From contig JAEFAE010000001.1 of assembly GCA_016291135.1 (NCBI GenBank), positions 124,001 to 188,000 on the forward strand: a DNA stretch of 64,000 bases. Reading direction: 5' to 3'. The stretch's first letter is position 1. Every line of letters starts with the position of its first letter. The DNA comes from Bacteroidales bacterium. Lineage in GTDB: Bacteria > Bacteroidota > Bacteroidia > Bacteroidales > F082. Below, one piece after another: positions 19,592-60,339 of the stretch. The position numbers and the translations under genes are program-made. The notes under the pieces were generated by a model. That model made no database searches, was not told the DNA's origin, and saw only the letters and a program-made list of their open reading frames with translations.

Positions 19592-20269
19592 TCACTGCTG
19601 TAACGCTTCCTTAATCGCCTTTAACGCCAAACCCTCCATCAGGTAATAGGTGTCGGGATTGGGGTGGCAGCCGTCCTCACTGAGGTTTTTGGGAAAGCCC
19701 ATGTCTTCATCAGCGAGTGCTGAATGATAATCCACATAGACCAAGTGGTTCGCTTCGGCGTAGGCTTTCAGCTCCTTGTTAATGGCAACGATGGTTTGGG
19801 CGGCGTCTTTGACCTCAGGCCTCCAAACAAAAGCTTTACATGGCGGGATGGAGCTGATGATGGGAATGATGCCGTTTGCTTGAGCCAACGTACACATCGA
19901 AATCACATTCTTCACTACTTGTTCGGGAGCCGTCCAATAGTCGTTAAGCGCCACATCGTTGGTACCCGCCATGATGACCACCGCCTTCGGATGGAGGTCG
20001 ATGACATCCGACTGGAACCGCACGAGGATATGGGCAGAGGTCTGTCCTCCGATCCCTCTACCACAATAGTTGTGGTCCTTGAAAAACTCGGGATGGTACA
20101 TCGCCCAAATCTCGGTGATGGAATTCCCGATGAAGACCACTTCGGGGAAAGCCTTATCGGATATTATCCGCTCGTTATCAGCCTTATAGTCGTTGAAACG
20201 AAACCAATCTTGGGAATAGCCGAACATGGATAGTGTCAAGAGCATGAGCATCATGATGGTTTTTTTCAT
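19592..20269 (-). CDS. Secreted SGNH/GDSL hydrolase
   Basis: The 225-residue protein has a signal peptide (cleavage near GYSQ) and the SGNH esterase/lipase fold. Block I is IGNSIT with the nucleophile Ser50, the oxyanion Gly is in GRGIGGQT, block III is GTND with Asn104, and the catalytic Asp-His pair is DGCHPN (Asp199, His202). It resembles platelet-activating factor acetylhydrolase-like and sugar O-acetyl esterases of Bacteroidota. Next to a GH20 hexosaminidase it may deacetylate glycans, which is inference from position. A near-consensus -7 box (TTACTTTG) is visible at 20288-20295 on the same strand. Confidence 0.9.
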   Translation of the reverse strand: MKKTIMMLMLLTLSMFGYSQDWFRFNDYKADNERIISDKAFPEVVFIGNSITEIWAMYHPEFFKDHNYCGRGIGGQTSAHILVRFQSDVIDLHPKAVVIMAGTNDVALNDYWTAPEQVVKNVISMCTLAQANGIIPIISSIPPCKAFVWRPEVKDAAQTIVAINKELKAYAEANHLVYVDYHSALADEDMGFPKNLSEDGCHPNPDTYYLMEGLALKAIKEALQQ

Positions 20270-20332: not shown

Positions 20333-20611
20333 ATGACCACAGCAGTTTATTATTGGATCCTCGCCGCCGTCCTGGCCATCCTCCTCTTCATCATTGGTAG
20401 CACCATCAAGAAACAAGGCAAGCGACTCGAATGGATCGGTTGGCTGAGCATCCCTTTGGCTGCCGCGCTGCTCATCGCAGTGTTATTGGGGATCCGCAGC
20501 TGCCGCAGCGACCGACTTGAGAAAGGTCTCAGCCACTGCACCAGGCAAGTCATCACGGAGGATGGAGATCGAAGTGTCGCTAGTTGGACGGAACAGAACA
20601 AAGGTGTGTAA
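20333..20611 (+). CDS. Small two-helix membrane protein of unknown function
   Basis: The 92-residue product has two strong hydrophobic helices (about residues 6-23 and 36-54) joined by a basic loop (KKQGKRLEW), then a polar tail. A TATCTTTG box 17 bases before the ATG supports real expression. The last 43 codons (20483-20611) overlap, tail to tail, with the 3' end of the zinc-ribbon protein gene on the other strand. The tail has no family-like look, so the natural product may end earlier and a frameshift or recent loss of a stop codon is possible. No family recognised. Confidence 0.6.
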   Translation: MTTAVYYWILAAVLAILLFIIGSTIKKQGKRLEWIGWLSIPLAAALLIAVLLGIRSCRSDRLEKGLSHCTRQVITEDGDRSVASWTEQNKGV

Positions 20612-21550
20612 GTCCTCTGGTTCTTCAGTCTTGATGATTCTAAAATCCTCCGCCACATCATAACGGCATTTCCCATGATCGAATAGGAAGACGTATTGTC
20701 CTTCCCCTTGATTGCCTATTCCAGATACCTCCCTGTCGAAATGCCAAACGATTGTTTTCCCATCGCCATTAAAGATTAAGGTATCCGCCTCATGGACAAA
20801 ACACCCTGAATGGGGTGCTGGGGGCGGCGTACCTGGATCGGGAGGAAGGTTGATGTGCTTGCAGCCACTGAAAAGGGCGACAATGATTGCGATAATCAGC
20901 GAAATGATAAAGATGGCGACAATGCAACCACCACGGCCTTTCTTTTTCGCTTGAGGCTGGCCCCCTTGGGGAGAAGCAGGTCTTTGTTGATACTGGGATT
21001 GAGGCGGTTGGGTACCACCACGAGGCGGCTGAGGCCTTTGGTAACCTCCTTGCGGCTGAGCACCTCGTGGCGCTTGGTAGGCTCCCTGAGGCTGCTGATA
21101 ACCGCCTTGGGTCTGCTGATAACCGCCTTGGGTCTGCTGATAACCGCCTTGGTTCTGCCGATAACTGCCTTGGGTCTGCTGATAACCGCTTTGGTTCTGC
21201 CGATAACTGCCTTGAGATTGCTGATACCCCCCTTGGGGAGCGCCGGTAGGTGGAGCTTGGCGCTGTGGACCCGCGTTGGGCTGAGGTTTAGGAGCTTCCC
21301 AAGTGGAAAGCACCACTTCTCCGGCGACGGCCGAGGCCATCACCCCCTCCCCTTCCTGAGGCGCGGACACGGGCTCCTGAGGGCGCTGCTGATACGGCGG
21401 CACCTGAGGGCGCTGCTGATAAGGCGGCTCCTGAGGTGGTTGTTGATAGGGTTCTTGCGGTCTTTGAACCTCTGGTGTTTTTAAGCCACAACGGGGACAG
21501 AACCTTGCCTCGTCATCCAGTTGGGCACCGCAATTAGAACAGTATTTCAT
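20483..21550 (-). CDS. Zinc-ribbon membrane protein with Q/G/Y-rich repeats
   Basis: The 355-residue protein starts with a zinc ribbon (CxxC-x10-CxxC, Cys4/7/18/21). A Pro/Gln-rich stretch follows, then about seven tandem 7-residue repeats of the GGYQQTQ / GSYRQNQ type (about 108-160), an Arg/Pro/Gln-rich stretch and a basic KKKGRGG. One transmembrane helix (about 210-230) precedes a C-terminal domain of about 120 residues. Positive charge before the helix implies the ribbon and repeats are cytoplasmic and the C-terminal domain is exported. The low-complexity repeats look like a flexible or phase-separating linker. It starts 3 bases after the stop of the giant protein A gene and is the last gene of the operon. 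No known function. Confidence 0.8.
   Translation of the reverse strand: MKYCSNCGAQLDDEARFCPRCGLKTPEVQRPQEPYQQPPQEPPYQQRPQVPPYQQRPQEPVSAPQEGEGVMASAVAGEVVLSTWEAPKPQPNAGPQRQAPPTGAPQGGYQQSQGSYRQNQSGYQQTQGSYRQNQGGYQQTQGGYQQTQGGYQQPQGAYQAPRGAQPQGGYQRPQPPRGGTQPPQSQYQQRPASPQGGQPQAKKKGRGGCIVAIFIISLIIAIIVALFSGCKHINLPPDPGTPPPAPHSGCFVHEADTLIFNGDGKTIVWHFDREVSGIGNQGEGQYVFLFDHGKCRYDVAEDFRIIKTEEPEDLHTFVLFRPTSDTSISILRDDLPGAVAETFLKSVAAAAADPQ
21084..21239. repeat. 21-bp tandem repeats inside the zinc-ribbon gene
   Basis: About seven copies of a 21-base unit (plus strand CTGCTGATAACCGCCTTGGG with variants) encode the GGYQQTQ heptads. Copies alternate between two subtypes (GGYQQTQ and GSYRQNQ), suggesting duplication of a two-unit block. 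In-frame copy-number change by slippage is expected. Confidence 0.85.
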
Positions 21551-21553
21551 AGC

Positions 21554-24500
21554 TTATAGATATGGATTAATTTCTTCAATGACATTCGTGCATTCATTCA
21601 CCACTTCTTCGAGGGTAGTACCGTATTTGCTCATCAGCACATTACGGGCCTGTTGCAAGGAGAGCTGTTTCACATCCGGGGGCGGCGGGGTCCCGACGGC
21701 TTCCAGAATCTTAATCTTCTCATAGAGGACACTGTAGTCTTTAGGGGCAACGCCCTTCACATTGAGCGCGTGGATACGTGGGTCGAGGATACGCTTGAAC
21801 TCCTTGACGTTCATACGCACCCCTTCCTTGACCAGCTCTTCGCCATAGCCCATCACATGCTTGGCCTCTTCCACCATACCCGCGTTGAACAGCTGTTCGG
21901 CCTGCGCTCTGCACGACTTGCCCTGATTGAGCCAGAATTCGCACTTGTACTTGACGGTATTGGCCACCTTCTTTGGATCGATGAGTGGGTTCGTCTGCAT
22001 CCCCTTGTCAATAATGTTTTTAAGGTCCTGACCGAACGACTCCAGTCCCTTCTCGCCGTTCACCACGGCCTGGTCGAACTTCCTCAAGGTCTTGATGGCT
22101 TCCTGCATATCATCGGGCATGTAGCCATAGTGGTATTTGTTGAAGGCTTCCGCGTAGGCTTCCTCCATCATGGACTCCTCGATGTCGACCCAGGTCTTGG
22201 TCTCCTCATTCCACACCTGGTACGTGACGTCGCGGTCGGCACCGATCTTCGTGCCTTCAAAAAGGTCTCCACCGGCATTGGACGAAGCCCCCTTCCAGGC
22301 TCTCACATTCTTGGGTTCCACCTTGAGACGGTTGGAAAGGATATCGATGGTGAGCGGATCCACTTCGTCATAAATCTTCTGGATGTTATGGTTGAAGTTG
22401 GCACGGAGCAGATCCGACTCGCTTTGGCGGAGGAGGTTCTGTGCGGCCTTGTTGCCTTGCAGGGCAAGGGTGGCACGACGCATCTGTTCAGGCGTAGCCG
22501 TGGGATCGTTCATCACCCTCTTGAAGTTTTCAAGAATCTTCTCGGCATCCTGCTTCGCCCATTTGGCGCATTCCTCGTTGAACTCCGAGCTGCCAAAGCG
22601 GATGACATCGTCTCCTCCTTCCTCTATGGTCTGCTTGATGGCTTGGTTGGCTTTTATGGCAGCGTCTCTCCGGATGTTCTTCACCTTGCTTCCTGCCTCC
22701 TTGACCTTGTCACCCAATTGTTTCGTGTTAAATACAGAAGGTTTAGAGAGACCCTGGGACACTTCCTTGCTCTTCTGAGCTCCTGAGACAGCTTCCTTGA
22801 TTTTTTCATAGCCGTCTTTCAAGCTTTTGATGCCTTTTTTGTTGGCATAATCCATAAGCTTGCCTTTACCCCAATTGATAGCTTTACCGCCCACATAGAA
22901 GACACCTTCCCAAAACACCACTTCCGAGCTCACCGTAGCGAAGCCTTTGAAAGCACTGTCGCCGCCCTTGTCAACATAATCCTTCAGTTTGACGAGGCCG
23001 CTTGCTGGGGTAAACACCAGTTCGGAGGCACCAGCGGTGAAGAATCCAAGTGCGATTCGGGCTCCCAGGAAGGTCCACGTCTTCTCCATCTTGCCGTATG
23101 TAGTCACAAAAGCGTCCAGGTTCTCGTCGGCAGCGGTCCAAGCAGGCGTCCAGGCCGCATCATTCACAAAATAACTGCCCATCTTACCCGAGCAGTAGTC
23201 ATTGAAAACCTTCATGACCTTTTGATAATCAGGCTCGTAAAAACCAAACTCGTTACTATAGCCCTCCACCATGGCATTTACCTTATAATAGAAAGGCATC
23301 AATTCGGCGAATTTCGGATCGAATGCTATTTTCGATCTCAAGTCGAGCAACTGCTCGTATTTTCGTTCATCCTCGTGAAGCACCCTATTGTATTCCCGAT
23401 TGTCGGAGATGTCACGATAAGGTTGTGAGATGATGGGGACGATGATGGAATCCTCGTACATCTTGTTCTGATAAGTCACCTTGACAGTTACCTTTGCCTT
23501 GGCACGGTTAGGCGGAAGAAGGCCACCCCCACAGGAATGGATGACACCTCTAACGGTATTGTCACTATTGACGCCCAACAGATCAAAACGGAAGTTCATC
23601 AAAGCACAGGGTGAAGCCACCTGATTACCGAATTTGTCAACGAAAAGCATACTGCCTTCTGCCACGTCTTCGAAAATAAATATCGGATCGCTATCAGGGA
23701 TAACACTTTTGATTTGTCCACTGGTCTGGTCTTCTGCAACAAGTTTGAAAGTGGCTTGGCTCTCACCCCACTTCTTACGTCCATTGGGATTGGTGGCAAG
23801 AGTCTCGCTATCAGAGCTGCTGTAATAGTCCACCAGATAAGCCTTGAGGGCGTGGACAAAGAGGCTCACGCCAAGGAAGATCCGATAAAGATCGATCTCA
23901 GCAGTGAGGGGCTCTTCCCGGTTGGCAAGTTTCACTGAGATTTTGCAGGTAAAGCATTGGGCGTCGCCTCCGATGGGTTTCTCCTTTGACTTCACTCCAC
24001 TTTCGGTGACATTGATGCGGAACTTGAGCGGGTTTTCTCCATTGGGCTCAGTCTGTGCCTTAAAGAATTGAGCACCTCTTTCGTCAATGGTCACCTGTAC
24101 ACTCGACACCATTCCCGAGTAATTGACGATCTGGAACTCCATGAACTCGGTCTTCCCCTCTCCTGCGGCGAAGGTAAGGGCTTCGCCAATGATGATCTCA
24201 GGAGCACCCATCACCTTGAAAACCACATGGTTGATCAAGGCTCCACCAGGCCAGATGAAGACCATGCGCACGCTGGCTTCTTCAAACGTATCGTTACTCG
24301 GTTCTTGGGTGGCAACTACATCGGCCGATTTGTATTTCTCCCCCATTCTGACATTGCTGACTCTACAATTACTCTCGGCGGTGATTTGTATCTTGGAGGT
24401 CAGGTCATTTCGCTCTATCTTACGTCCTTCGCAGGTGATTTCCTCAATTCTCACACCGATAGTCTGAGGTGGGTCGTTTGCAACCAACGTATCGCCAAAG

Positions 24501-25240
24501 TTCTTGTACAGAATCATGCGATAGGTGCTGTGCGGCGGTTCCGACTCTTCTTGTGGCTCCTGCTTCTTAGGCTCTTTATTACCTTTCGTTTTGTTTTTAC
24601 CCTTGCTGCCTTTTGTTATTGCAATTGCCGCTCCCCCAGCGACAAGTCCACCAACAACGATGAACCCCCATGGTATTTCAGGACCTTCTTGCTCGCCGGG
24701 ATCTGGGGACACAGGCGTAATCACTTCCTTTACTTCTCCAATATAGGTGTAAACGTAGGAGACCGCCTTACATACCTTATTCAAATCATCATCTAGATAA
24801 AAAGGCCATAGATTTATATTTAATATTTCTCCACTTTTTAAATCCAGCTGTTCAAAATTTGAATTGCTGCTGTAGGTGACCAAGAAACCATCGTCGCCTC
24901 CCCATAAGTTTATCCCGCGGTCAAGCCTAGGCAGCCAAATGCTTCCCCAAAAACCATACGACAGATCCGAATCCCACTTCTGCTCGGTGAAGGGTATCTT
25001 GATTTTTTCTTCGTCTCCAAGTGCGATCTTGCTGGGCGGATCTTGCCATGAAAAAGACAACACCGAACAAGATGCGCTGTTTTGCGACACCACCCAATCT
25101 CCTTCGGGTTGACCGACATAAGGATTTCCCCTGAATTCGACATGATCCAGCACCCAATAACCCTGGTTGTTGTTCTCCGCCTGCATTCCAAGGGCCGAAA
25201 CGAACAATAGTATTAAAAGAGGAAGACGTTTTATATTCAT
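21554..25240 (-). CDS. Giant secreted/membrane protein A, paralog of the 25249 gene, unknown function
   Basis: The 1228-residue protein has a signal peptide (1-21) and an N-terminal exported region (22-185) with a Trp/Gly-rich GYWVLDHVEFRG motif. A PGEQEGPEIPW motif precedes a transmembrane helix (about 190-209), followed by a Lys-rich stretch. Residues 240-610 are beta-rich and Ig-like. A helical segment (610-720) and a hydrophobic stretch with small residues (722-790) come next. The C-terminal helical part (835-1228) holds a conserved GASS...GADRDVT stretch (984-1006). Positive-inside logic puts the region after the helix in the cytoplasm. No catalytic family recognised. Gene B lies 8 bases upstream and the zinc-ribbon gene 3 bases downstream, so one operon is likely. 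Confidence 0.85.
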   Translation of the reverse strand: MNIKRLPLLILLFVSALGMQAENNNQGYWVLDHVEFRGNPYVGQPEGDWVVSQNSASCSVLSFSWQDPPSKIALGDEEKIKIPFTEQKWDSDLSYGFWGSIWLPRLDRGINLWGGDDGFLVTYSSNSNFEQLDLKSGEILNINLWPFYLDDDLNKVCKAVSYVYTYIGEVKEVITPVSPDPGEQEGPEIPWGFIVVGGLVAGGAAIAITKGSKGKNKTKGNKEPKKQEPQEESEPPHSTYRMILYKNFGDTLVANDPPQTIGVRIEEITCEGRKIERNDLTSKIQITAESNCRVSNVRMGEKYKSADVVATQEPSNDTFEEASVRMVFIWPGGALINHVVFKVMGAPEIIIGEALTFAAGEGKTEFMEFQIVNYSGMVSSVQVTIDERGAQFFKAQTEPNGENPLKFRINVTESGVKSKEKPIGGDAQCFTCKISVKLANREEPLTAEIDLYRIFLGVSLFVHALKAYLVDYYSSSDSETLATNPNGRKKWGESQATFKLVAEDQTSGQIKSVIPDSDPIFIFEDVAEGSMLFVDKFGNQVASPCALMNFRFDLLGVNSDNTVRGVIHSCGGGLLPPNRAKAKVTVKVTYQNKMYEDSIIVPIISQPYRDISDNREYNRVLHEDERKYEQLLDLRSKIAFDPKFAELMPFYYKVNAMVEGYSNEFGFYEPDYQKVMKVFNDYCSGKMGSYFVNDAAWTPAWTAADENLDAFVTTYGKMEKTWTFLGARIALGFFTAGASELVFTPASGLVKLKDYVDKGGDSAFKGFATVSSEVVFWEGVFYVGGKAINWGKGKLMDYANKKGIKSLKDGYEKIKEAVSGAQKSKEVSQGLSKPSVFNTKQLGDKVKEAGSKVKNIRRDAAIKANQAIKQTIEEGGDDVIRFGSSEFNEECAKWAKQDAEKILENFKRVMNDPTATPEQMRRATLALQGNKAAQNLLRQSESDLLRANFNHNIQKIYDEVDPLTIDILSNRLKVEPKNVRAWKGASSNAGGDLFEGTKIGADRDVTYQVWNEETKTWVDIEESMMEEAYAEAFNKYHYGYMPDDMQEAIKTLRKFDQAVVNGEKGLESFGQDLKNIIDKGMQTNPLIDPKKVANTVKYKCEFWLNQGKSCRAQAEQLFNAGMVEEAKHVMGYGEELVKEGVRMNVKEFKRILDPRIHALNVKGVAPKDYSVLYEKIKILEAVGTPPPPDVKQLSLQQARNVLMSKYGTTLEEVVNECTNVIEEINPYL
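22392..22729. repeat. Near-identical patch shared with gene B (copy 1)
   Basis: These 338 bases align without gaps to 26081-26418 with 7 mismatches by eye (about 98% identity), far above the level of flanking coding DNA. It covers the segment from before GSSEFNEECAKW to NIRRDAAIKANQ in the protein. Confidence 0.9.
22881..23136. repeat. Second near-identical patch shared with gene B (copy 1)
   Basis: These 256 bases align without gaps to 26573-26828 with about 12 mismatches by eye (about 95%). They encode the hydrophobic segment around residues 705-790 of protein A. Confidence 0.88.
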
Positions 25241-25248
25241 ACGGAGGT

Positions 25249-28200
25249 TTATAGGTATGGATTCACTTCTTCAATGACATTCGTGCATTCATTCACCACT
25301 TCTTCGAGGGTGGTACCGTATTTGCTCATCAGCACATTACGAGCCTGTTGCAAGGAGAGTGGCGTCACATCCTTGGGGGGCGGTGTGCCGACGGCTTCCA
25401 GCACCTTGATCTTTTCATAGAGCAGGCTGTAATCCTTTGGCGCGACACCCTTCACGTTAAGGGCCTGAATACGCGGATCAAGGATACGCTTGAACTCCTT
25501 GACATTCATACGGACGCCTTCCTTGACCAACTCTTCGCCATAGCCCATCACATGCTTGGCTTCCTCAACCATTCCAGCGTTGAAGAGCTGCTCGGCCTGA
25601 GCCCTGCACGACTTGCCTTGGTTGAGCCAGAAGTCGCACTTGTACTTGACAGTCTTGGCCACTCGCTCTGGATCGATGAGTTTGTTCGTCTGCATTCCTT
25701 TATCAATAATGTTTCTAAGGTCCTTGCCGAATGACTCAAGGCCAGTCTCGCCGTTTACCACGGCCTGGTCGAACTTCCTCAATGTCTTGACGGCCTCCTG
25801 CTGGTCTTTCGGCATAAATCCATAGTGATATTCGGTGAAAGCATCGGCGTACGCCTGTTCCATGATGTCTTCCCGGATGTCAACCCACTTGCCGTCCTTG
25901 CGCACTTGGAAGGTAACGTCACGGTCTGCTCCGATCTTTTTACCATAATAAAGGTCGCTGCTGGCATTGGAGGAGGCACCGTCCCAAACTCTGATATCGT
26001 CTTTGTTCACGCCAAGGCGTGCCGCCAGTTCTTCTATGGTCAATTGGTCGGCCTCTTGATAGATCTTTTTCAGATTCGCATTGAAGTTGGCACGGAGCAG
26101 ATCCGACTCGCTTTGACGGAGGAGGTTCTGCGCGGCCTTGTTGCCTTGCAGGGCAAGAGTGGCGCGACGCATCTGTTCAGGCGTAGCCGTGGGATCGTTC
26201 ATCACCCTCTTGAAGTTTTCAAGAATCTTCTCGGCATCCTGCTTCGCCCATTTGGCGCATTCCTCGTTGAACTCCGAGCTGCCAAAGCGGACGACATCGT
26301 CTCCTCCTTCCTCTATGGTCTGCTTGATGGCTTGGTTGGCTTTGATGGCAGCGTCTCTCCGGATGTTCTTCACCTTGCTTCCCGCCTCCTTGACCTTGTC
26401 ACCCAATTGTTTCGTGTTGACGGTAGGTGGCTTCACAAGGCCTTTGGAGACATTTTTGCTCTTTTCGGCGCCGAAGATCATCTCCTTGATCTTGTCATAT
26501 TTTGTTTTCAGCTTGTCCGTAAGTCCAATCTTATCGGAAAAGCTTTTGAGTTTGCCACCGGCCCATTTCATGGCTTTACCGCCTACATAGAAGACGCCTT
26601 CCCAAAACACCACTTCCGAGCTCACCGTAGCGAAGCCCTCAAAAGCACTGTCACCGCCCTTGTCAACATAATCCTTCAGTTTGACGAGGCCACTTGCTGG
26701 GGTAAACACCAGTTCGGAAGCACCAGCGGTGAAGAATCCAAGTGCGATTCGGGCTCCCAGGAAGGTCCACGTCTTCTCCATGTTGCCGTACGTAGTAATA
26801 AAAGCGTCCAGGTTCTCGTCGGCAGCGGACCAGGTGGGCGTCCAAGCGGCTTGGTTCACAAAATAATAACCGATCTTCCCCGATACATAGTCTTGATAGA
26901 TCTTTTTAATCTTCTGGTAATCAGGCTCATAGAATCCAAATTCTTGACTATAACCTTCTACCATGGCATGCACCTTATAGTAAATGGGCGTTAAATAGGC
27001 AAACTTGGGATCCCAGGCAATCTTCGATCGGATGTCAACCAACTGCTTGTACTTCTGATCGTCCTCATGAAGCACCCTGCTATATTCCCGATTGTCGGTA
27101 ATGTCGCGATACGGCTGAGAAATGATGGGGACCTCTACCGAATCCGAGTAGCTCTTGTTTTGGTAGCTCACCGTGATGGTCACTTTGGCCTTGGCACGAT
27201 TCGGCGGGAGCAATCCGCCGCCTCGGGATCGGAAGACGCCCCGGACCGTGTTGTCTTCGTGGATCGTCACCAAATCGAACTTGAAGTTCATCAGCTGGCA
27301 AACCGAAGCAATCAGGTTCCCCTCCTTGTCGGCAAACATCATGCTGCCTTCCTGAATATCCTCAAAGGTAAACACCGGATCGCCGTCGGGAATGACACTC
27401 TTGATCTGTCCGTTCCGCTGGTCCTCGACGACGAGTTTGAAGGTCACTGCACTCTCGCCCCATTTCTTTCGGGTATTGGGACCCATGGGGAGCCGCTCGC
27501 TTTTCCAGTTGCTGTCATATTCCACCAGATAGGCCTTGAGGGCGTGGACAAAGAGGCTCACGCCGAGGAACATCCGATAGAGGTCAAACGAGGCGTAAAC
27601 AGGGTCCTCCTGGTCGGCAAGCTTCACCTCCACCTTGCAGGTAAAGCGCTGGGCATCGCCTCCGATGGGTTTCTCGGAGGGCTTGACACCGCATTCGGTG
27701 ATGTTGATGCGGAACTTGTAGGGGTTTTCACTGTTAGGTTCCGTCTGTGCCTTAAAGTATTGGGCACCCCTTTCGTCAATGGATACCTGCACCCCCGACA
27801 CCGTTCCCGAGAAATTGACGATTTGGAACTCCATGAACTCGGTCTTCCCATCGCCAGCGGCGAAGGTAAGGGCTTCTCCTATGACGATTTCGGGAGCACC
27901 CATCACTTTGAATATCACATGGTTGATCAGCACCCCATGGGCACCTCTAAAGACAAAGCGCACCTTGGCTTGTCCCAACTGTCCTTCTCTGGGAGCCTCT
28001 TTGGCGGTCACGCCAGCTGCCATGTACCGGCCCCATCTTCCGACATTGCTGAGGGTACAGTTTTCCTCATCCCAAATGGAAATCTGGGCAGTGAGGTCAT
28101 CGCGGTCGTAGGTATAGCCTTCCGGCGTAATCTCCTCGATCCTTGCTCCTACCATACGTGGTTTTTCTCCCACGACAAGGGTATCGCCAAAGTCCTTATA

Positions 28201-29277
28201 CATCACCATCCGGAAACGGCTGGGTGCTTTTGCCACCGGCTCTTCGGGTTGTTCTTTTGCTGCCGGCTTGTTTTTGCCTTTCTTGTTCTTGCTTTTAGCA
28301 ATGGCCACACTTCCGCCAACCAAAACGGTTCCACCAACGATAAAACCCCATGGGATCTCGGGGCCTTCCTGCTCCCCTGGATCAGAAGAAGCCGTTGTAG
28401 TCGTCTCGATCAATCCCCCTTCAGGAACGTAGGTGTAATGATACACGTACATCCAGCCATAGTTCTTTCTAAGGGCCCTGGCATCTTGTCCATCAAAGGC
28501 CTTGTTGTTAACACCCTCTTTTACACTATGAAAATCGTAATGGGCAAAGATGGCGATATCCAAGGTACACAGTTTATCGTCAGGAATCGCTTCTGAGCCA
28601 AAGGTCGGTTGCATATAGTCATGTCCACCCATCATCAAGATGTCCGAACCTGCCGAAAAGTCTTGGTTCAAGAAACCTTCTTCGTGGACCCACTCTTTTT
28701 CGAAATATTGTTCACTCCAGTCGTAAGGCCACATCTGGATGTTACGCTGCTTCTGCCCTCTTTTGCCGTAAGCAATCGCCTCTCCAAAGACGGACCACGG
28801 ACAGTATTCATAATAGACAGGATCCGAATCGAAAGATTCATCTCCCTGGGGGATGAGCTCTACCTGGCGGTTACGCTTCTTTGTTTTTAGACAGCTTTTA
28901 CTATAGGGGATCACCGCCCGATGCTCCTGTCCGACGGGGATTTTATCGGGTGGGTCGTTCCATGTAACGGTGCATTCCTCACAAGAAGCATGGTTCTTTT
29001 TCACCGACCAGTCGCCGTAGAAAGGCTTTGCCTTGGACTCGGGGACACTTTCCCCATACGGCCAGTAGTTCATGTCGTCAATCATGTTGGAGCCCACCAT
29101 CAAATGGTAGCCCCTGACTTCGCTGTTCGTCAGCACCCAGTAGCCCCTGTCGGGGAATGGCTCATGCACCCATCGCTTCTCGCCATTGGATCCTGTCCCA
29201 ATTTTCCAAAGCTGTGCGCTTGAAGAACCCGCCATTACGACAAGAACCAGCGCAAGAAGGTATCGCATCTTGTTCAT
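25249..29277 (-). CDS. Giant secreted/membrane protein B, paralog of the 21554 gene, unknown function
   Basis: The 1342-residue protein has the same plan as protein A: signal peptide (1-21), a longer N-terminal exported region (22-300) with GYWVLTNSEVRG and many Trp/Tyr, the EQEGPEIPWGF motif and a transmembrane helix (306-328). A Lys-rich stretch, the beta-rich region with MYKDFGDTL, a hydrophobic segment and the C-terminal helical domain with GASS...GADRDVT (about 1100-1122) follow. The two differ most in the N-terminal exported part and in a linker before NTKQLGDKVK, and are almost identical over parts of the C-terminal half. It is the third gene of the operon, 12 bases after the 29290 gene. 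No known family or enzyme motif was recognised. Confidence 0.87.
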   Translation of the reverse strand: MNKMRYLLALVLVVMAGSSSAQLWKIGTGSNGEKRWVHEPFPDRGYWVLTNSEVRGYHLMVGSNMIDDMNYWPYGESVPESKAKPFYGDWSVKKNHASCEECTVTWNDPPDKIPVGQEHRAVIPYSKSCLKTKKRNRQVELIPQGDESFDSDPVYYEYCPWSVFGEAIAYGKRGQKQRNIQMWPYDWSEQYFEKEWVHEEGFLNQDFSAGSDILMMGGHDYMQPTFGSEAIPDDKLCTLDIAIFAHYDFHSVKEGVNNKAFDGQDARALRKNYGWMYVYHYTYVPEGGLIETTTTASSDPGEQEGPEIPWGFIVGGTVLVGGSVAIAKSKNKKGKNKPAAKEQPEEPVAKAPSRFRMVMYKDFGDTLVVGEKPRMVGARIEEITPEGYTYDRDDLTAQISIWDEENCTLSNVGRWGRYMAAGVTAKEAPREGQLGQAKVRFVFRGAHGVLINHVIFKVMGAPEIVIGEALTFAAGDGKTEFMEFQIVNFSGTVSGVQVSIDERGAQYFKAQTEPNSENPYKFRINITECGVKPSEKPIGGDAQRFTCKVEVKLADQEDPVYASFDLYRMFLGVSLFVHALKAYLVEYDSNWKSERLPMGPNTRKKWGESAVTFKLVVEDQRNGQIKSVIPDGDPVFTFEDIQEGSMMFADKEGNLIASVCQLMNFKFDLVTIHEDNTVRGVFRSRGGGLLPPNRAKAKVTITVSYQNKSYSDSVEVPIISQPYRDITDNREYSRVLHEDDQKYKQLVDIRSKIAWDPKFAYLTPIYYKVHAMVEGYSQEFGFYEPDYQKIKKIYQDYVSGKIGYYFVNQAAWTPTWSAADENLDAFITTYGNMEKTWTFLGARIALGFFTAGASELVFTPASGLVKLKDYVDKGGDSAFEGFATVSSEVVFWEGVFYVGGKAMKWAGGKLKSFSDKIGLTDKLKTKYDKIKEMIFGAEKSKNVSKGLVKPPTVNTKQLGDKVKEAGSKVKNIRRDAAIKANQAIKQTIEEGGDDVVRFGSSEFNEECAKWAKQDAEKILENFKRVMNDPTATPEQMRRATLALQGNKAAQNLLRQSESDLLRANFNANLKKIYQEADQLTIEELAARLGVNKDDIRVWDGASSNASSDLYYGKKIGADRDVTFQVRKDGKWVDIREDIMEQAYADAFTEYHYGFMPKDQQEAVKTLRKFDQAVVNGETGLESFGKDLRNIIDKGMQTNKLIDPERVAKTVKYKCDFWLNQGKSCRAQAEQLFNAGMVEEAKHVMGYGEELVKEGVRMNVKEFKRILDPRIQALNVKGVAPKDYSLLYEKIKVLEAVGTPPPKDVTPLSLQQARNVLMSKYGTTLEEVVNECTNVIEEVNPYL
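26081..26418. repeat. Near-identical patch shared with gene A (copy 2)
   Basis: Partner of 22392-22729; see that entry. The offset between the copies is constant at 3689 bases over the patch. Confidence 0.9.
26573..26828. repeat. Second near-identical patch shared with gene A (copy 2)
   Basis: Partner of 22881-23136, at a constant offset of 3692 bases. The roughly 150 bases between the two patches are clearly more divergent, so identity rises and falls in blocks. Confidence 0.88.
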
Positions 29278-29289
29278 GGCTCGGGCTAT

Positions 29290-29928
29290 TTAGTGTTTCA
29301 AATTCGGACAATGCGACTTGATGAAATCCAAGACAAAGTCATAATCCTCGTCGGTAACATACACCTGGTTCCTGTCGAGCAGCTGGTTCACTTTGATGGT
29401 GTGAAGCCAACGACGACCGCGCACGCGACGTACATTCTTGAAGTTGGAGACACTGGGGGTTTTCGCCATGGAGAGCATGCCTGCACCGGCCACACTGGGA
29501 CGTTTGGCAAAAAGGCCTACAAGAAAAGTCAGAAAACCCAGTTTTAGCGCTTTGTTTGACTGCTCGTTCAGTTGGAGGTGTTTCACCGAATGCTCATCCA
29601 TCTCAAAACGGGCCACATAGCTCCCACCGAAAAGGGCATTCAAGATCGCTGCGCTAATAATGGTCAGGACGAAGAAAATGCCTAATACCACACCCGTCAC
29701 CTTTAACATCATAATGGCTCCGTCAAAGTTATGATCTTGAATATAAAAAATCAAACCGAAGACCAGGATCATCGCCAGCGAAACGTAAAAGAAGATCTTA
29801 AACACCGTGATCATAATGACCGGGTTCTTGATCATATTCAGTTCATATCTCCAGCGGTATTTCCCGTCCTGGCAGAGGCGGACTTCCGCTCCTCGATAAT
29901 CGTTAGGGGCAAGGGGTTCTGTTTTCAT
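29290..29928 (-). CDS. Two-helix membrane protein with PH-like C-terminal domain (paralog 1)
   Basis: The 212-residue protein begins with a soluble segment holding the motif DGKYRWRYELNMIKNP. Two transmembrane helices (about 38-58 and 75-100) follow, then a C-terminal domain of about 105 residues with the FEMDEHSVKHLQ, VRRVRGRRWLHTIKVN and NQVYV..DYDFVLDFI motifs. That pattern looks like YcxB-type bacterial PH domains, which read the membrane surface, but this is inference by eye. It is about 45-50% similar to the next gene by inspection, so the pair arose by duplication. It precedes giant protein B by 12 bases. Function unknown. Confidence 0.8.
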   Translation of the reverse strand: MKTEPLAPNDYRGAEVRLCQDGKYRWRYELNMIKNPVIMITVFKIFFYVSLAMILVFGLIFYIQDHNFDGAIMMLKVTGVVLGIFFVLTIISAAILNALFGGSYVARFEMDEHSVKHLQLNEQSNKALKLGFLTFLVGLFAKRPSVAGAGMLSMAKTPSVSNFKNVRRVRGRRWLHTIKVNQLLDRNQVYVTDEDYDFVLDFIKSHCPNLKH

Positions 29929-29960
29929 AAGGCAATGGTATTATTGTTTATAATTGTTCA

Positions 29961-30593
29961 TTATTTTGCATTCGTACAATGCTTCCTGATGAAGTCATAG
30001 ACAAAGTCAAAGTCCTTGTCGTGAACATAGACTTGATTCCTAAATAGCCGCTGATTGACCTTGATCAAGTCTCTCCTGCGATAGGCCTTGATCCGACGCA
30101 CCTTGGAATAGACCGAGGTGCTTTTGTTGTTCGCAGCAGCCAACATCCCTGCTCCCATAGCGGTCGGACTTTTGGCCGCGGCACCCACCAAAGCGGTAAG
30201 CAACCCGATCAATTCCCCTTTCTCCACTTGTCGCGGCATCTGGATGTGTGCGATCTCATTTTCATCCATCTCAAAGAGGACGACGTACTTGCCACCATGA
30301 ATAAAGGAAACCAACAACACTCCAAGGAATGTCAAGACAGCGAACCCACCCAGGGCAATCAACGCCCCTTTTGCCATGTCCCAAAGGCCGGCCCAATCTC
30401 CATGAATCCCATAGAGGATGGTGCCGAAGATGGCGAAACCAATGAGGATGATGTAAAAAAAGATTTTGTAAACCGTCAGGAAAATCGTGGGGTTGGTGAT
30501 CATGTTCATCTCATAGATCCAACGGTATTTCCCGTCATTGCAAAGCCTAACCTCATTTCCTTGGTACTGGCTGTCATCCAAATAGCCTTTCAT
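29961..30593 (-). CDS. Two-helix membrane protein with PH-like C-terminal domain (paralog 2)
   Basis: The 210-residue protein shares the plan of its neighbour: an N-terminal DGKYRWIYEMNMITNP motif, two membrane helices (about 36-58 and 73-98), then a C-terminal domain with FEMDENEIAHIQ, VRRIKAYRRRDLIKVN and NQVYVHDKDFDFVYDFI. It is the first gene of the five-gene operon. No TAnnTTTG box was found in the 81 bases upstream, so it may be read through from murF-alr on the same strand. Function unknown; the PH-like reading is tentative. Confidence 0.8.
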   Translation of the reverse strand: MKGYLDDSQYQGNEVRLCNDGKYRWIYEMNMITNPTIFLTVYKIFFYIILIGFAIFGTILYGIHGDWAGLWDMAKGALIALGGFAVLTFLGVLLVSFIHGGKYVVLFEMDENEIAHIQMPRQVEKGELIGLLTALVGAAAKSPTAMGAGMLAAANNKSTSVYSKVRRIKAYRRRDLIKVNQRLFRNQVYVHDKDFDFVYDFIRKHCTNAK

Positions 30594-30674: not shown

Positions 30675-33143
30675 TTATTCTTGATAATAGACACGTTTCA
30701 CGCGTTGTGAGATGCGGGTCATCACCTCGTAGGGGATGGTCTGGCAGGCCTTGGCTATGTCGCCAATCGGATGCTCCGCGTCGAAGACCACCACAGTGTC
30801 GCCTTCCTGGGCCTCCACCCCGGTGAGGTCGAGCATACACATATCCATGCAGATGTCGCCGATAATGGGCACCGGCTGGTTGTTGATATAGAACTTGGCG
30901 TTGCCGTTGCCGAGCAACCTCGAGAGGCCGTCGGCATAGCCAATAGGCACAATGCCAATCCGCATGTCGTGCAACGCGCGGCCATGGCGGTTGTAGCCGA
31001 TGCTGTCACCTGCCGGCACTTCCTTGATCTGGTTGATGGTGGTCTTGAGCGACACCACGGTCTCCAAGACGTCTTCGTCCTGCTTGCAGGTGGGTACTCC
31101 ATAGAGGCCGATACCCAGACGCACCATGTCGAACTGGTATTGGGTGAAGCGGGTGATTCCCGCGGTGTTGAGGATGTGGCGCAACACCTTGTACGGGAAG
31201 GCATCGACGATCATCTGGCTACCCTGCTCGAACACCTTGATCTGACTCATCGTGAAGTCGTCCTCATCGGGGTTGTCGGCGGTGGCCAGGTGGGAGAACA
31301 CGCTCCGCACGTGGATCAGCGGGTTGGCCTGGATGCGGCGGATCAGCTCGGGAAGTTCCTTCAGCGAGAAGCCCAGGCGGTGCATGCCGGTGTCGAGTTT
31401 CACATGGACGTTGAGCGGGAGCGTGACGCCCGTCACCTCGAGCGCCCGTTCAATGAGCTCCAGGTTGCGGAAGCTGAACACCTCCGGCTCCAGGTGGTAT
31501 TTGATGATGTTGTCGTAGCTGTTGATCTCGGGACTCATTACCATGATGGGCAGGGTGATGCCGGCACGGCGCAGTTCGACGCCCTCGTCGGCAAAAGCCA
31601 CCGTCAGGTAGTCGGCCCGGTGGAACTGCAAGATGTTCGACACCTCGTAGTTGCCACTGCCATAGCCGAAGGCCTTCACCATCACCATGATCTTGGTTTC
31701 GGGTTTGATCAGCGAACGGTAGTGGTTGAAGTTGTTGACCAAGTGGTTGAAGTTGATCTCCAGCACGGTCTCATGCGCCTTCTCCTGCAGCTCCATACCG
31801 ATCTGCTCGAACTCGAAGGCACGTGCACCCTTGAGCAGGATGGTCTGGTTGCGGAACTGTGAGAAGGGGAACCGTTGCATGAAGTCGTTGACATCGTCGA
31901 AGAACCGGCTGTTCTGCGGAAACTGTCTGGCTTGCCGCGAGATGGCAGGGCCGATGCCGACAAGCATGCCGACGCCCTTCTCATGGATGAGTTCGGCGAT
32001 GGCCCCGTAGAGCTCCCGTTCATCGCGACCGCTCTCCAGGATGTCGGAGAGGATGAGCACCTTCTCCTTGTGCTGTTGCTGCTGGTTCATCACGTCGAGG
32101 GCGATGGACAGGGAGTTGACATCGGAATTGTAATAGTCGTTGACGATGGTGCAGTTGTTGATGCCCGCTTTGATCTCGAGGCGCATGGCGATGGACGACA
32201 TGCCCAGGAGCCGTTGGGCCAGCACCTGAGGATCCATCTTCATCTCCAGACAGACCACAATGCAATGGATGGCATTCTCCACCGAAGCGTCGTCCACAAA
32301 GGGAATGACAAACGTCATGGGCTCGTTCCGGACCACCAGCGACAAAGTGGCGAACTTGCCTTGTTTCTGCACGTCGGCGACATAGACGGGGGCCTCCTTG
32401 AACTTGCGGCTCCAAGGCAGCAGCCGCACTTTCTTGCCCAGGTCCGCCCGAAGGATCACCTGCTGGATGTCGTAGTAATCCATGCAATAGACCAAGGCCT
32501 CCGCCTGCGTGAACAGGTTGAGTTTCTCCCCTGCCTTCTGCATGTAGCTGATGAAATTCTCCTCATGGGCCTGTCCGATGTTGGTGAACACGCCCAGGGT
32601 AGGCTGGATGATCTTCTGCAAGGCACCCATCTCGTTGGGTTTGGAGATGCCCGCCTCGAAGATGCCCAGCTGGTGGGTCTCGTTCATCTGCCACACCGAC
32701 AGGGGCACGCCCACCTGCGAGTTGTAACTCTTGGGACTCCGCACGAGATGGAAGTCGGGGCTCAGCAGTTGGGCTAGCCATTCCTTGACGATGGTCTTGC
32801 CGTTACTGCCCGTCAGGCCGATTACCGGGACGTGGAACCGGCTCCGATGATGGGCAGCCAGCTGTTGCAGGGCTTTCAAGGTGTCTTGCACCAACACAAA
32901 TCCCGCCTCCGGAAAGTCTCCTTCCGGGACATGGTTGACCACGAAGGCGCGAACGCCTTTCTGATAGAGGTCTCCAATATATTTATGACCGTCGTTGCGA
33001 TGGCTGACCAAGGCGAAAAAGAGGGTCTGACGACCCGCCATCACCTGCCGGCTGTCGATGAGCAGGTCTTGAATCATCCGGTCGTCGAGGCACCCTGCCC
33101 ACTGGCCATCAATCACTTCAACGATTTCACTTAATGCATACAT
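30675..33143 (-). CDS. murF-alr: Bifunctional UDP-MurNAc-tripeptide:D-Ala-D-Ala ligase / alanine racemase
   Basis: This 822-residue fusion is typical of Bacteroidota. Residues 1-450 are MurF, which adds D-Ala-D-Ala to the UDP-MurNAc-tripeptide; GLTGSNGKT is the ATP-binding loop and NDYYNSDVNSL a family motif. Residues 455-822 are alanine racemase, which supplies D-Ala. The PLP lysine lies in MVKAFGYGSG (about residue 490), and the second catalytic Tyr is expected in the IGYNRHG region. The protein links D-Ala supply and use in peptidoglycan synthesis. It follows ackA and a small conserved gene on the minus strand. Length and both active sites look intact. Confidence 0.95.
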   Translation of the reverse strand: MYALSEIVEVIDGQWAGCLDDRMIQDLLIDSRQVMAGRQTLFFALVSHRNDGHKYIGDLYQKGVRAFVVNHVPEGDFPEAGFVLVQDTLKALQQLAAHHRSRFHVPVIGLTGSNGKTIVKEWLAQLLSPDFHLVRSPKSYNSQVGVPLSVWQMNETHQLGIFEAGISKPNEMGALQKIIQPTLGVFTNIGQAHEENFISYMQKAGEKLNLFTQAEALVYCMDYYDIQQVILRADLGKKVRLLPWSRKFKEAPVYVADVQKQGKFATLSLVVRNEPMTFVIPFVDDASVENAIHCIVVCLEMKMDPQVLAQRLLGMSSIAMRLEIKAGINNCTIVNDYYNSDVNSLSIALDVMNQQQQHKEKVLILSDILESGRDERELYGAIAELIHEKGVGMLVGIGPAISRQARQFPQNSRFFDDVNDFMQRFPFSQFRNQTILLKGARAFEFEQIGMELQEKAHETVLEINFNHLVNNFNHYRSLIKPETKIMVMVKAFGYGSGNYEVSNILQFHRADYLTVAFADEGVELRRAGITLPIMVMSPEINSYDNIIKYHLEPEVFSFRNLELIERALEVTGVTLPLNVHVKLDTGMHRLGFSLKELPELIRRIQANPLIHVRSVFSHLATADNPDEDDFTMSQIKVFEQGSQMIVDAFPYKVLRHILNTAGITRFTQYQFDMVRLGIGLYGVPTCKQDEDVLETVVSLKTTINQIKEVPAGDSIGYNRHGRALHDMRIGIVPIGYADGLSRLLGNGNAKFYINNQPVPIIGDICMDMCMLDLTGVEAQEGDTVVVFDAEHPIGDIAKACQTIPYEVMTRISQRVKRVYYQE

Positions 33144-60271: not shown

Positions 60272-60295
60272 GGCAAATTAGGATGGTATCTTTTG

Positions 60296-60303
60296 CAAAG
60301 ATA
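60296..60303 (-). promoter_or_regulatory. -7 box (TATCTTTG) for the beta-helix gene
   Basis: TATCTTTG on the minus strand lies 24 bases before the ATG at 60271. It forms a back-to-back pair with the queA box. Confidence 0.7.
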
Positions 60304-60317
60304 GAAAAAAGAAATCG

Positions 60318-60325
60318 TACTTTTG
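60318..60325 (+). promoter_or_regulatory. -7 box (TACTTTTG) for queA
   Basis: TACTTTTG lies 14 bases before the queA ATG at 60340, so the leader would be very short. Confidence 0.6.
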
Positions 60326-60339
60326 CAAAAAAATCTGGG

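What the first reader, a model, noticed from the sequence alone, without database searches (positions are those of the whole stretch)
20483..30593. Five-gene operon of giant paralogous membrane proteins, PH-like membrane proteins and a zinc-ribbon prion-like protein
Genes at 30593, 29928, 29277, 25240 and 21550 run head to tail on one strand with gaps of 32, 12, 8 and 3 bases. The parts are two duplicated two-helix proteins with PH-like tails (DGKYRW motif), two giant paralogs (1342 and 1228 aa) with a signal peptide, exported N-terminal domain, one membrane helix and a long beta-rich/helical remainder, and a CxxC zinc-ribbon protein with GGYQQTQ heptads and a membrane anchor. Two duplications plus tight spacing suggest a membrane-spanning complex. 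I recognise no known system. The gene set is seen; a joint function is inference.
Basis: partly seen in the sequence, partly recalled or inferred. Interest (0 to 1): 0.85.

Follow-up and report, generated by a model that had tools for sequence, protein, structure and literature searches.

The report
Uncharacterised membrane gene module across phyla
Five neighbouring genes in a gut bacterium belong to a gene set, found together in several unrelated bacterial groups, that seems to build a machine across the cell membrane with an enzyme-like part of unknown function inside the cell.

Summary
The five-gene operon is real and its coordinates are exact. It is one copy of a conserved module. In 33 giant-gene loci with enough flank, a PH protein lies within 2.5 kb in 22, a separate zinc-ribbon gene in 28, both in 21. 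PH-giant pairs, at most two genes apart, occur in Bacteroidota, Actinomycetota, Bacillota and a Verrucomicrobiota-phylum genome. The small proteins fold as a PH domain split by a membrane hairpin. The window's giants reach no curated Pfam or NCBIfam cut-off and no PDB sequence. Their last 320 residues form a confident domain whose D1118, D1120, K1213, K1260, E1253 and R1256 are near-invariant in a 98-row alignment, like an active site. New here: the zinc-ribbon protein carries a motif, A[PS]xxxGE[FV][VT]LxxWxxP, that goes with the giant rather than with PH. Best reading: an exchangeable envelope-spanning module in which exported domains signal to a cytosolic enzyme-like domain, with the zinc-ribbon protein docked on the giant. 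The module is shown; catalysis, docking and signal are inferred. Nucleotidyltransferase, toxin and defence readings were tested without support.

The parts
29961..30593 (-). PH protein a (210 aa): PH fold split by a two-helix membrane hairpin
   Evidence: ORF; model (mean pLDDT 81.7); PH/FERM/PTB matches
29290..29928 (-). PH protein b (212 aa), paralogue of a (49% identity over residues 7-210 of a)
25249..29277 (-). Giant A (1342 aa): exported N-terminal domain, one membrane helix, long cytosolic part, C-terminal enzyme-like domain
28300..28356 (-). Membrane helix of giant A (residues 308-326), lysine-rich after it
   Evidence: 87 of 89 family members scored have more K/R after than before the helix
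25252..26223 (-). C-terminal enzyme-like domain of giant A (residues 1019-1342)
25918..25926 (-). D-R-D (residues 1118-1120); both aspartates in 96 of the 96 rows with a residue there
26131..26370 (-). Tract of A (residues 970-1049) nearly identical in DNA to giant B (98 and 97.5% in two windows): gene conversion
21554..25240 (-). Giant B (1228 aa), paralogue of A with a shorter, diverged exported domain
24614..24670 (-). Membrane helix of giant B (residues 191-209)
21560..22534 (-). C-terminal enzyme-like domain of giant B
   Evidence: G000:C43:145560-146534, E 3.5e-108
20483..21550 (-). Zinc-ribbon protein (355 aa): N-terminal zinc ribbon, low-complexity linker, membrane helix, exported C-terminal part
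   Evidence: side of the membrane inferred
21290..21337 (-). Conserved linear motif (residues 72-87, GEVVLSTW core) in the linker of the zinc-ribbon protein
20870..20926 (-). Membrane helix of the zinc-ribbon protein (residues 209-227)

Best explanation
An exchangeable, envelope-spanning protein module. The giant sits in the inner membrane with its variable N-terminal domain outside and about 1000 residues inside, ending in a conserved domain that is probably an enzyme (two-aspartate DxD site, a third acidic residue, invariant lysines and an E-x-x-R-x-x-x-K stretch, as expected for metal-assisted phosphoryl or nucleotidyl transfer). The zinc-ribbon protein also spans the membrane; its cytosolic linker carries a short motif that docks on the giant. 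The PH protein is a membrane-embedded adaptor. Something outside the membrane is sensed by the exported parts and changes the activity of the inner domain. Shown: gene set, cross-phylum linkage, topology signature, near-invariant residues, motif tied to the giant. Inferred: catalysis, docking, sensing, direction of signal.
For: Linkage in 33 usable loci: PH 22, separate Zn gene 28, both 21. PH at most two genes from the giant in L070 and L072 (Coriobacteriaceae and Eggerthellaceae record titles), L079 (Acetoanaerobium) and L136 (phylum of the Verrucomicrobia genome). Conserved site in a 98-row alignment, rows with a residue counted: D1118 96/96, D1120 96/96, K1213 97/97, K1260 97/97, E1253 94 E + 3 D of 97, R1256 94/97, D1170 90 D + 7 E of 97. 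Domain pLDDT about 90 or more over most of it. Topology: 87 of 89 scored. Motif in 38 of 62 Zn ORFs, 37 of 42 loci with one; in 500 shuffles mean 0.33, maximum 3 of 62. Motif-bearing Zn protein in 36 of 58 giant loci, 0 of 11 PH-only loci, and 5 giant loci with the motif but no PH found. Giant and PH distances correlate over 33 loci, r 0.57, 0 of 5000 permutations. The exported domain is among the least similar parts of A versus B. One Zn-ribbon relative carries an OmpA domain after its hydrophobic stretch, fitting an exported C-terminus.
Against: No fold match for the enzyme-like domain, though a 613-residue model is a poor query for one domain. No activity data. Of 33 usable giant loci 11 lack a nearby PH and 5 a nearby separate Zn gene by the scan used. 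One relative of the domain (L140) seems, by eye, to have lost the DxD. The motif could bind something other than the giant. The 11 PH-only loci come from one genus (10 genomes), and 6 of the 11 hold no zinc-ribbon ORF besides the PH gene in which the motif could have been seen. Many giant loci are close relatives and some are cut by contig ends, so the Fisher and Mantel values overstate independence.
Confidence: 0.5

Rival explanations
1. Polymorphic-toxin-like conflict protein: the C-terminal domain is a toxin, the helical part before it a pre-toxin region, the small proteins trafficking or immunity partners.
For: Large modular proteins with an exported N-terminus and tandem copies (12 of 55 loci hold two or more giant ORFs, two of them, L058 and L061, looking like one interrupted gene) with gene conversion. 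A relative (L103, 876 aa) with the multi-membrane N-terminal part found in Acetoanaerobium ends differently. A small gene of one cluster (156-173 aa) follows the giant directly in L049, L051 and L059 and two genes later in L066, so a partner gene is not excluded there.
Against: The C-terminus is the conserved part, not the variable one. In L137, L138 and L139 the domain lies inside large proteins, not at the end. The charge pattern puts it in the cytosol. In the parts of the neighbourhood listing I saw (one search was cut) no small gene other than the Zn gene follows the giant generally. The KGGDS resemblance I saw by eye in L103 was not found by a profile.
Confidence: 0.2
2. Structural linker: the giant is a non-catalytic beam joining envelope and cytoplasm, with PH and zinc-ribbon proteins as clamps; the invariant residues hold the fold.
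For: Very long protein whose modelled half is mostly helical; PH fold similar to adaptor PH/FERM domains; no enzyme family detected (families shown).
Against: Among the positions at 90% or more in the domain, charged residues (D, D, D, D, K, K, K, E, R, R) dominate, which is more typical of an active or ligand site.
Confidence: 0.17
3. Anti-phage or abortive defence system.
For: Patchy: giants in 3 of 100 relatives, own genome included, and spread across phyla. One slot in one genus carries alternative cargo. Weak PADLOC rows for the giants (Cas10b, E 0.0062 and 0.0099, about 90 residues) are read as noise.
Against: No strong PADLOC match for the five proteins (best E 0.0048, in the low-complexity Zn protein). 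Of 103 neighbouring proteins scanned (103 of 201 that met my distance and length limits), six PADLOC models matched one member each at E 1e-5; the 25 of 81 Pfam families shown are mostly ordinary metabolic or transport families. No match to giant A in 50,697 phage records.
Confidence: 0.08

Closest known systems
TcaA-type zinc-ribbon membrane proteins (NF053815; S. aureus TcaA)
   Same: N-terminal zinc ribbon, then membrane helix and exported part (layout of TcaA recalled; the passage of PMC10611510 that I saw says only 'zinc ribbon domain-containing protein', 454 residues)
   Different: 11.8 bits against a cut-off of 550; the window protein has a long linker with the conserved motif and giant partners
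Bacterial PH domains (PF03703/DUF304 and others)
   Same: PH fold with membrane helices
   Different: No Pfam family for the two window proteins and no PH family among the 25 of 34 families shown for 47 members; the membrane hairpin is inserted after the first strand of the fold
Peptide-binding PH/PTB domains (kindlin, TBC1D23 PH)
   Same: Top fold matches (first 12 Foldseek rows E 0.03-0.09; VIA)
   Different: Weak E-values; split by a membrane hairpin; peptide binding untested
AbiEii-type nucleotidyltransferases (PF08843)
   Same: An x[AST][TS]GN loop followed by DxD on a strand and a third acidic residue, by eye (AbiEii motifs recalled)
   Different: Profile comparison with 5 AbiEii proteins at background level, close to reversed-alignment and PH controls
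Polymorphic toxins
   Same: Large multi-domain proteins with exported N-terminus
   Different: Conserved rather than variable C-terminus; no general immunity-like gene seen

Membership tests
TcaA family (NF053815) | score above the curated cut-off (550 bits) | tested here: not met
   11.8 bits, residues 1-34 only
Zinc-ribbon domain (PF13240) | score above the gathering cut-off | tested here: met
   36.3 bits vs 25
PH fold | seven strands and a C-terminal helix in a confident model | tested here: met
Bacterial PH Pfam families | Pfam match | tested here: inconclusive
   0 families for either window PH protein; none among the 25 of 34 families shown for 47 members
Nucleotidyltransferase (AbiEii) | profile similarity over the catalytic core | tested here: inconclusive
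   hhalign probability 0.13 and 0.23%, controls 0.07-0.31%; only 5 AbiEii proteins in the profile; no NTase family among the 25 of 27 shown
Nucleotidyltransferase fold | structural match of the isolated domain | tested here: inconclusive
   not listed for the 613-residue model; domain not folded alone
Polymorphic toxins | variable C-terminal toxin domain after a conserved body | tested here: not met
   the C-terminal domain is the conserved end in the 98-row alignment: D1118 and D1120 in 96 of 96 rows with a residue
Polymorphic toxins | immunity gene directly downstream | tested here: inconclusive
   a zinc-ribbon gene, nothing, or in L049, L051 and L059 a 158-aa gene of one cluster follows the giant; immunity function not testable
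Known anti-phage defence systems (PADLOC) | clear match to a PADLOC model | tested here: not met
   best E 0.0048 (14.4 bits, Zn protein), giants 0.0062 and 0.0099 (Cas10b model); PADLOC gives no cut-off here

The most novel reading that the evidence does not exclude
The C-terminal domain of the giants is a new enzyme family (metal-dependent phosphoryl or nucleotidyl transferase) at the end of a transmembrane sensor, controlled by a zinc-ribbon partner that docks through a linear motif: an undescribed transmembrane signalling device shared by four bacterial phyla and found mostly in gut and rumen genomes.
Probability: 0.22. Interest if true: 0.85.

Novelty: categorically new. Interest (0 to 1): 0.62.

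Why it matters
A conserved gene set with no named family for its main protein, an active-site-like residue cluster kept across phyla and a short docking motif give concrete handles on a piece of bacterial envelope biology that the libraries searched do not name. If the domain is an enzyme, its product and trigger would be a new signalling or modification reaction in rumen and gut bacteria. Five literature searches listed no paper that by title or abstract start describes it; passages of two papers were read.

Full report
OBSERVATION. Upstream lies a fused murF-alr gene (30675-33143; Pfam Mur ligase and alanine racemase), downstream a GDSL lipase/acylhydrolase (19592-20269). The genome is an unnamed assembly of 2.62 Mb in 60 contigs; giant A has no other match there than itself and B.

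WHAT THE FAMILIES ARE. Of the five, only the zinc ribbon of the last gene reaches a Pfam cut-off; NCBIfam and PADLOC give weak rows only. A database search with giant A returned 116 relatives, itself included, down to 24% identity, all without a precomputed Pfam domain; 21 diverse giants shared no Pfam family (at most two members in one) and had no PDB sequence match. The PH protein has 1650 relatives at E 0.001, 120 listed, some of them with an added zinc ribbon.

THE MODULE IS REAL. A scan of public genome contigs gave 53 loci. Record titles name Bacteroidales, Bacteroidia, Bacteroidaceae, Prevotellaceae, Coriobacteriales, Coriobacteriaceae, Eggerthellaceae, Lachnospiraceae, Clostridiales, Ruminococcaceae and one Verrucomicrobia; many titles name rumen, other ruminant gut or RUG assemblies. 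A plasmid-collection record of Acetoanaerobium noterae gave another locus. With six-frame profiles, 33 loci (window and L079 included) had at least 2.5 kb upstream and 1.5 kb downstream: PH within 2.5 kb in 22, a zinc-ribbon ORF other than the PH gene in 28, both in 21. An earlier count from automatic ORF picks gave 15, 19 and 13 of 30. The 11 usable loci without PH are L038, L040, L041, L060, L069, L071, L073, L074, L076, L077 and L078. Without a separate N-terminal zinc-ribbon ORF are L040, L060, L074, L078 and L079 (L079 has one with the ribbon at the C-terminus). In the Clostridia loci L073, L076 and L077 a zinc-ribbon protein with several hydrophobic stretches stands before the giant, and in L079 a similar stretch begins the giant itself (L073 and L079 are linked by BLAST through L103; L076 and L077 by eye). 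A genome of the Verrucomicrobia phylum has PH (E 3e-8), a 138-aa gene and a 2233-aa giant in a row. Giant and PH distances over 33 loci correlate (r 0.57, 0 of 5000 permutations); shared descent of the hosts contributes to this.

EXCHANGE AT ONE SLOT. Of 100 relatives searched (60 of the window's genus, own included) the PH gene is in 16 and giants in 3 (own genome counted in both). After murF-alr the slot holds: two PH, two giants, Zn (window); PH, one giant, Zn (L026); PH, two giants, Zn (L027); a 916-aa zinc-ribbon membrane protein and PH (L096); or PH without giant or Zn gene (L100). I infer that the PH gene is the resident and the rest is cargo. The domain is rare elsewhere: 1 of 395 genomes drawn from the phylum (the window's own), 2 of 398 in the phylum of the Lachnospiraceae locus (centre included), 6 of 288 in the phylum of the Verrucomicrobia locus (centre included).

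GIANTS. 83 of 89 scored giants have an N-terminal hydrophobic segment and 87 of 89 have more K/R after the membrane helix than before (27 of 116 were not scored): N-terminus out, about 1000 residues in, by the positive-inside rule. The C-terminal half of A (730-1342) was modelled at mean pLDDT 82.6, with about 90 or more over most of 1010-1342. Fold searches gave no convincing match; the tool warns that a 613-residue model can hide a single domain. In the 98-row alignment A4, D1118 and D1120 are 96/96, K1213 and K1260 97/97, E1253 94 plus 3 D of 97, R1256 94/97, D1170 90 plus 7 E of 97, T1122 89/96, D1186 92/95 (rows with a gap left out). Such charged invariance suggests an active or ligand site. 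The same domain also occurs inside large proteins of Verrucomicrobia-phylum genomes (L137-L139, E 3.5e-21 to 6.4e-16) and in a 452-aa protein where the DxD seems lost by eye (L140).

DOCKING MOTIF. The linkers of the zinc-ribbon proteins are low-complexity and look poorly conserved, except for one stretch: A[PS]xxxGE[FV][VT]LxxWxxP. G and W are fixed by the search pattern; of 38 hits, E is present in 37, A five before G in 37, P three after W in 29. The pattern is in 38 of 62 zinc-ribbon ORFs and in 37 of 42 loci with such an ORF; in 500 shuffles the mean is 0.33 and the maximum 3; in other ORFs over 100 aa 11 of 2881; in giant ORFs 5 of 78; in PH ORFs 0 of 42. It occurs in Bacteroidales and in L067, L070 and L072 (Coriobacteriales, Coriobacteriaceae and Eggerthellaceae records). 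The zinc-ribbon proteins of L073, L075, L076 and L077 (Clostridia) lack it in the form sought. With a slightly stricter pattern it is in 36 of 58 giant loci (cut loci included), 0 of 11 PH-only loci, and in 5 giant loci in which no PH was found (L038, L041, L067, L069, L071; L067 is cut close upstream). Only 5 of the 11 PH-only loci have a zinc-ribbon ORF beyond the PH gene, so the negative side is thin. The motif therefore goes with the giant, and the simplest reading is that it binds the giant's cytosolic part.

HOW IT LIKELY WORKS. Exported domains on the giant and on the Zn protein sense something beyond the inner membrane; the PH protein anchors or bridges at the inner face; the Zn protein docks through its motif; the C-terminal domain carries out a reaction, probably phosphoryl or nucleotidyl transfer judging by the residue set. 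Every step after topology and linkage is inference.

RIVALS. Toxin: the C-terminus is conserved, the domain also lies mid-protein, and no general immunity-like gene is seen, although a 158-aa gene of one cluster follows the giant in L049, L051 and L059. Defence: no strong PADLOC match, neighbours mostly housekeeping (six PADLOC models, one member each, among 103 proteins scanned of 201 eligible; 25 of 81 Pfam families seen), no phage match for giant A. Structural beam: not excluded. Nucleotidyltransferase: pattern by eye, profile test at background.

LITERATURE. Searches (terms there) listed nothing on this gene set. I read passages of PMC10611510 and PMC3581485; for all other papers only the search listing was seen.

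Noticed in passing
L096:8068-10815 (-), L038:276-3158, L018:1176-2738: Alternative zinc-ribbon membrane proteins beside PH genes (L096, L018) or in a giant locus (L038) carry an exported stretch ending in HFS, which recalls the self-cleaving ZU5/FIIND motif (recalled; no such Pfam match).
   Followed up: partly
L104:1106-1966 (-): Zinc ribbon, hydrophobic stretch and OmpA domain in one protein near a PH gene.
   Followed up: partly
L103:4062-6689 (-): 876-aa relative of the multi-membrane N-terminal part of the clostridial giants with a different C-terminus, next to a zinc-ribbon PH gene.
   Followed up: partly
window 60292-60329: Bacteroidota-type promoter pattern (recalled) on both strands of the same site; 8 such matches in the window against 0.82 expected.
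   Followed up: no
window 29724-29755 (-): A match to the same promoter pattern inside PH gene b; may be chance or an internal promoter for the giants.
   Followed up: no
window 20333-20611 (+): 92-aa ORF on the opposite strand with two hydrophobic stretches by eye, overlapping the 3' end of the zinc-ribbon gene.
   Followed up: no
genome of L069 (G104), loci L105-L107: One Bacteroidaceae genome holds four copies of the enzyme-like domain on four contigs; one giant overlaps the start of a zinc-ribbon PH gene.
   Followed up: partly
L066:14439-15617, L044:14503-15681: Secreted proteins of about 393 aa in giant operons that match only the giant's exported N-terminal domain.
   Followed up: no
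L049:4029-4505, L051:6578-7054, L059:1211-1687, L066:15655-16125, L052:7219-7740: A cluster of small genes (156-173 aa, lipoprotein-like start by eye in L066) that follows the giant directly in three loci; function unknown.
   Followed up: no
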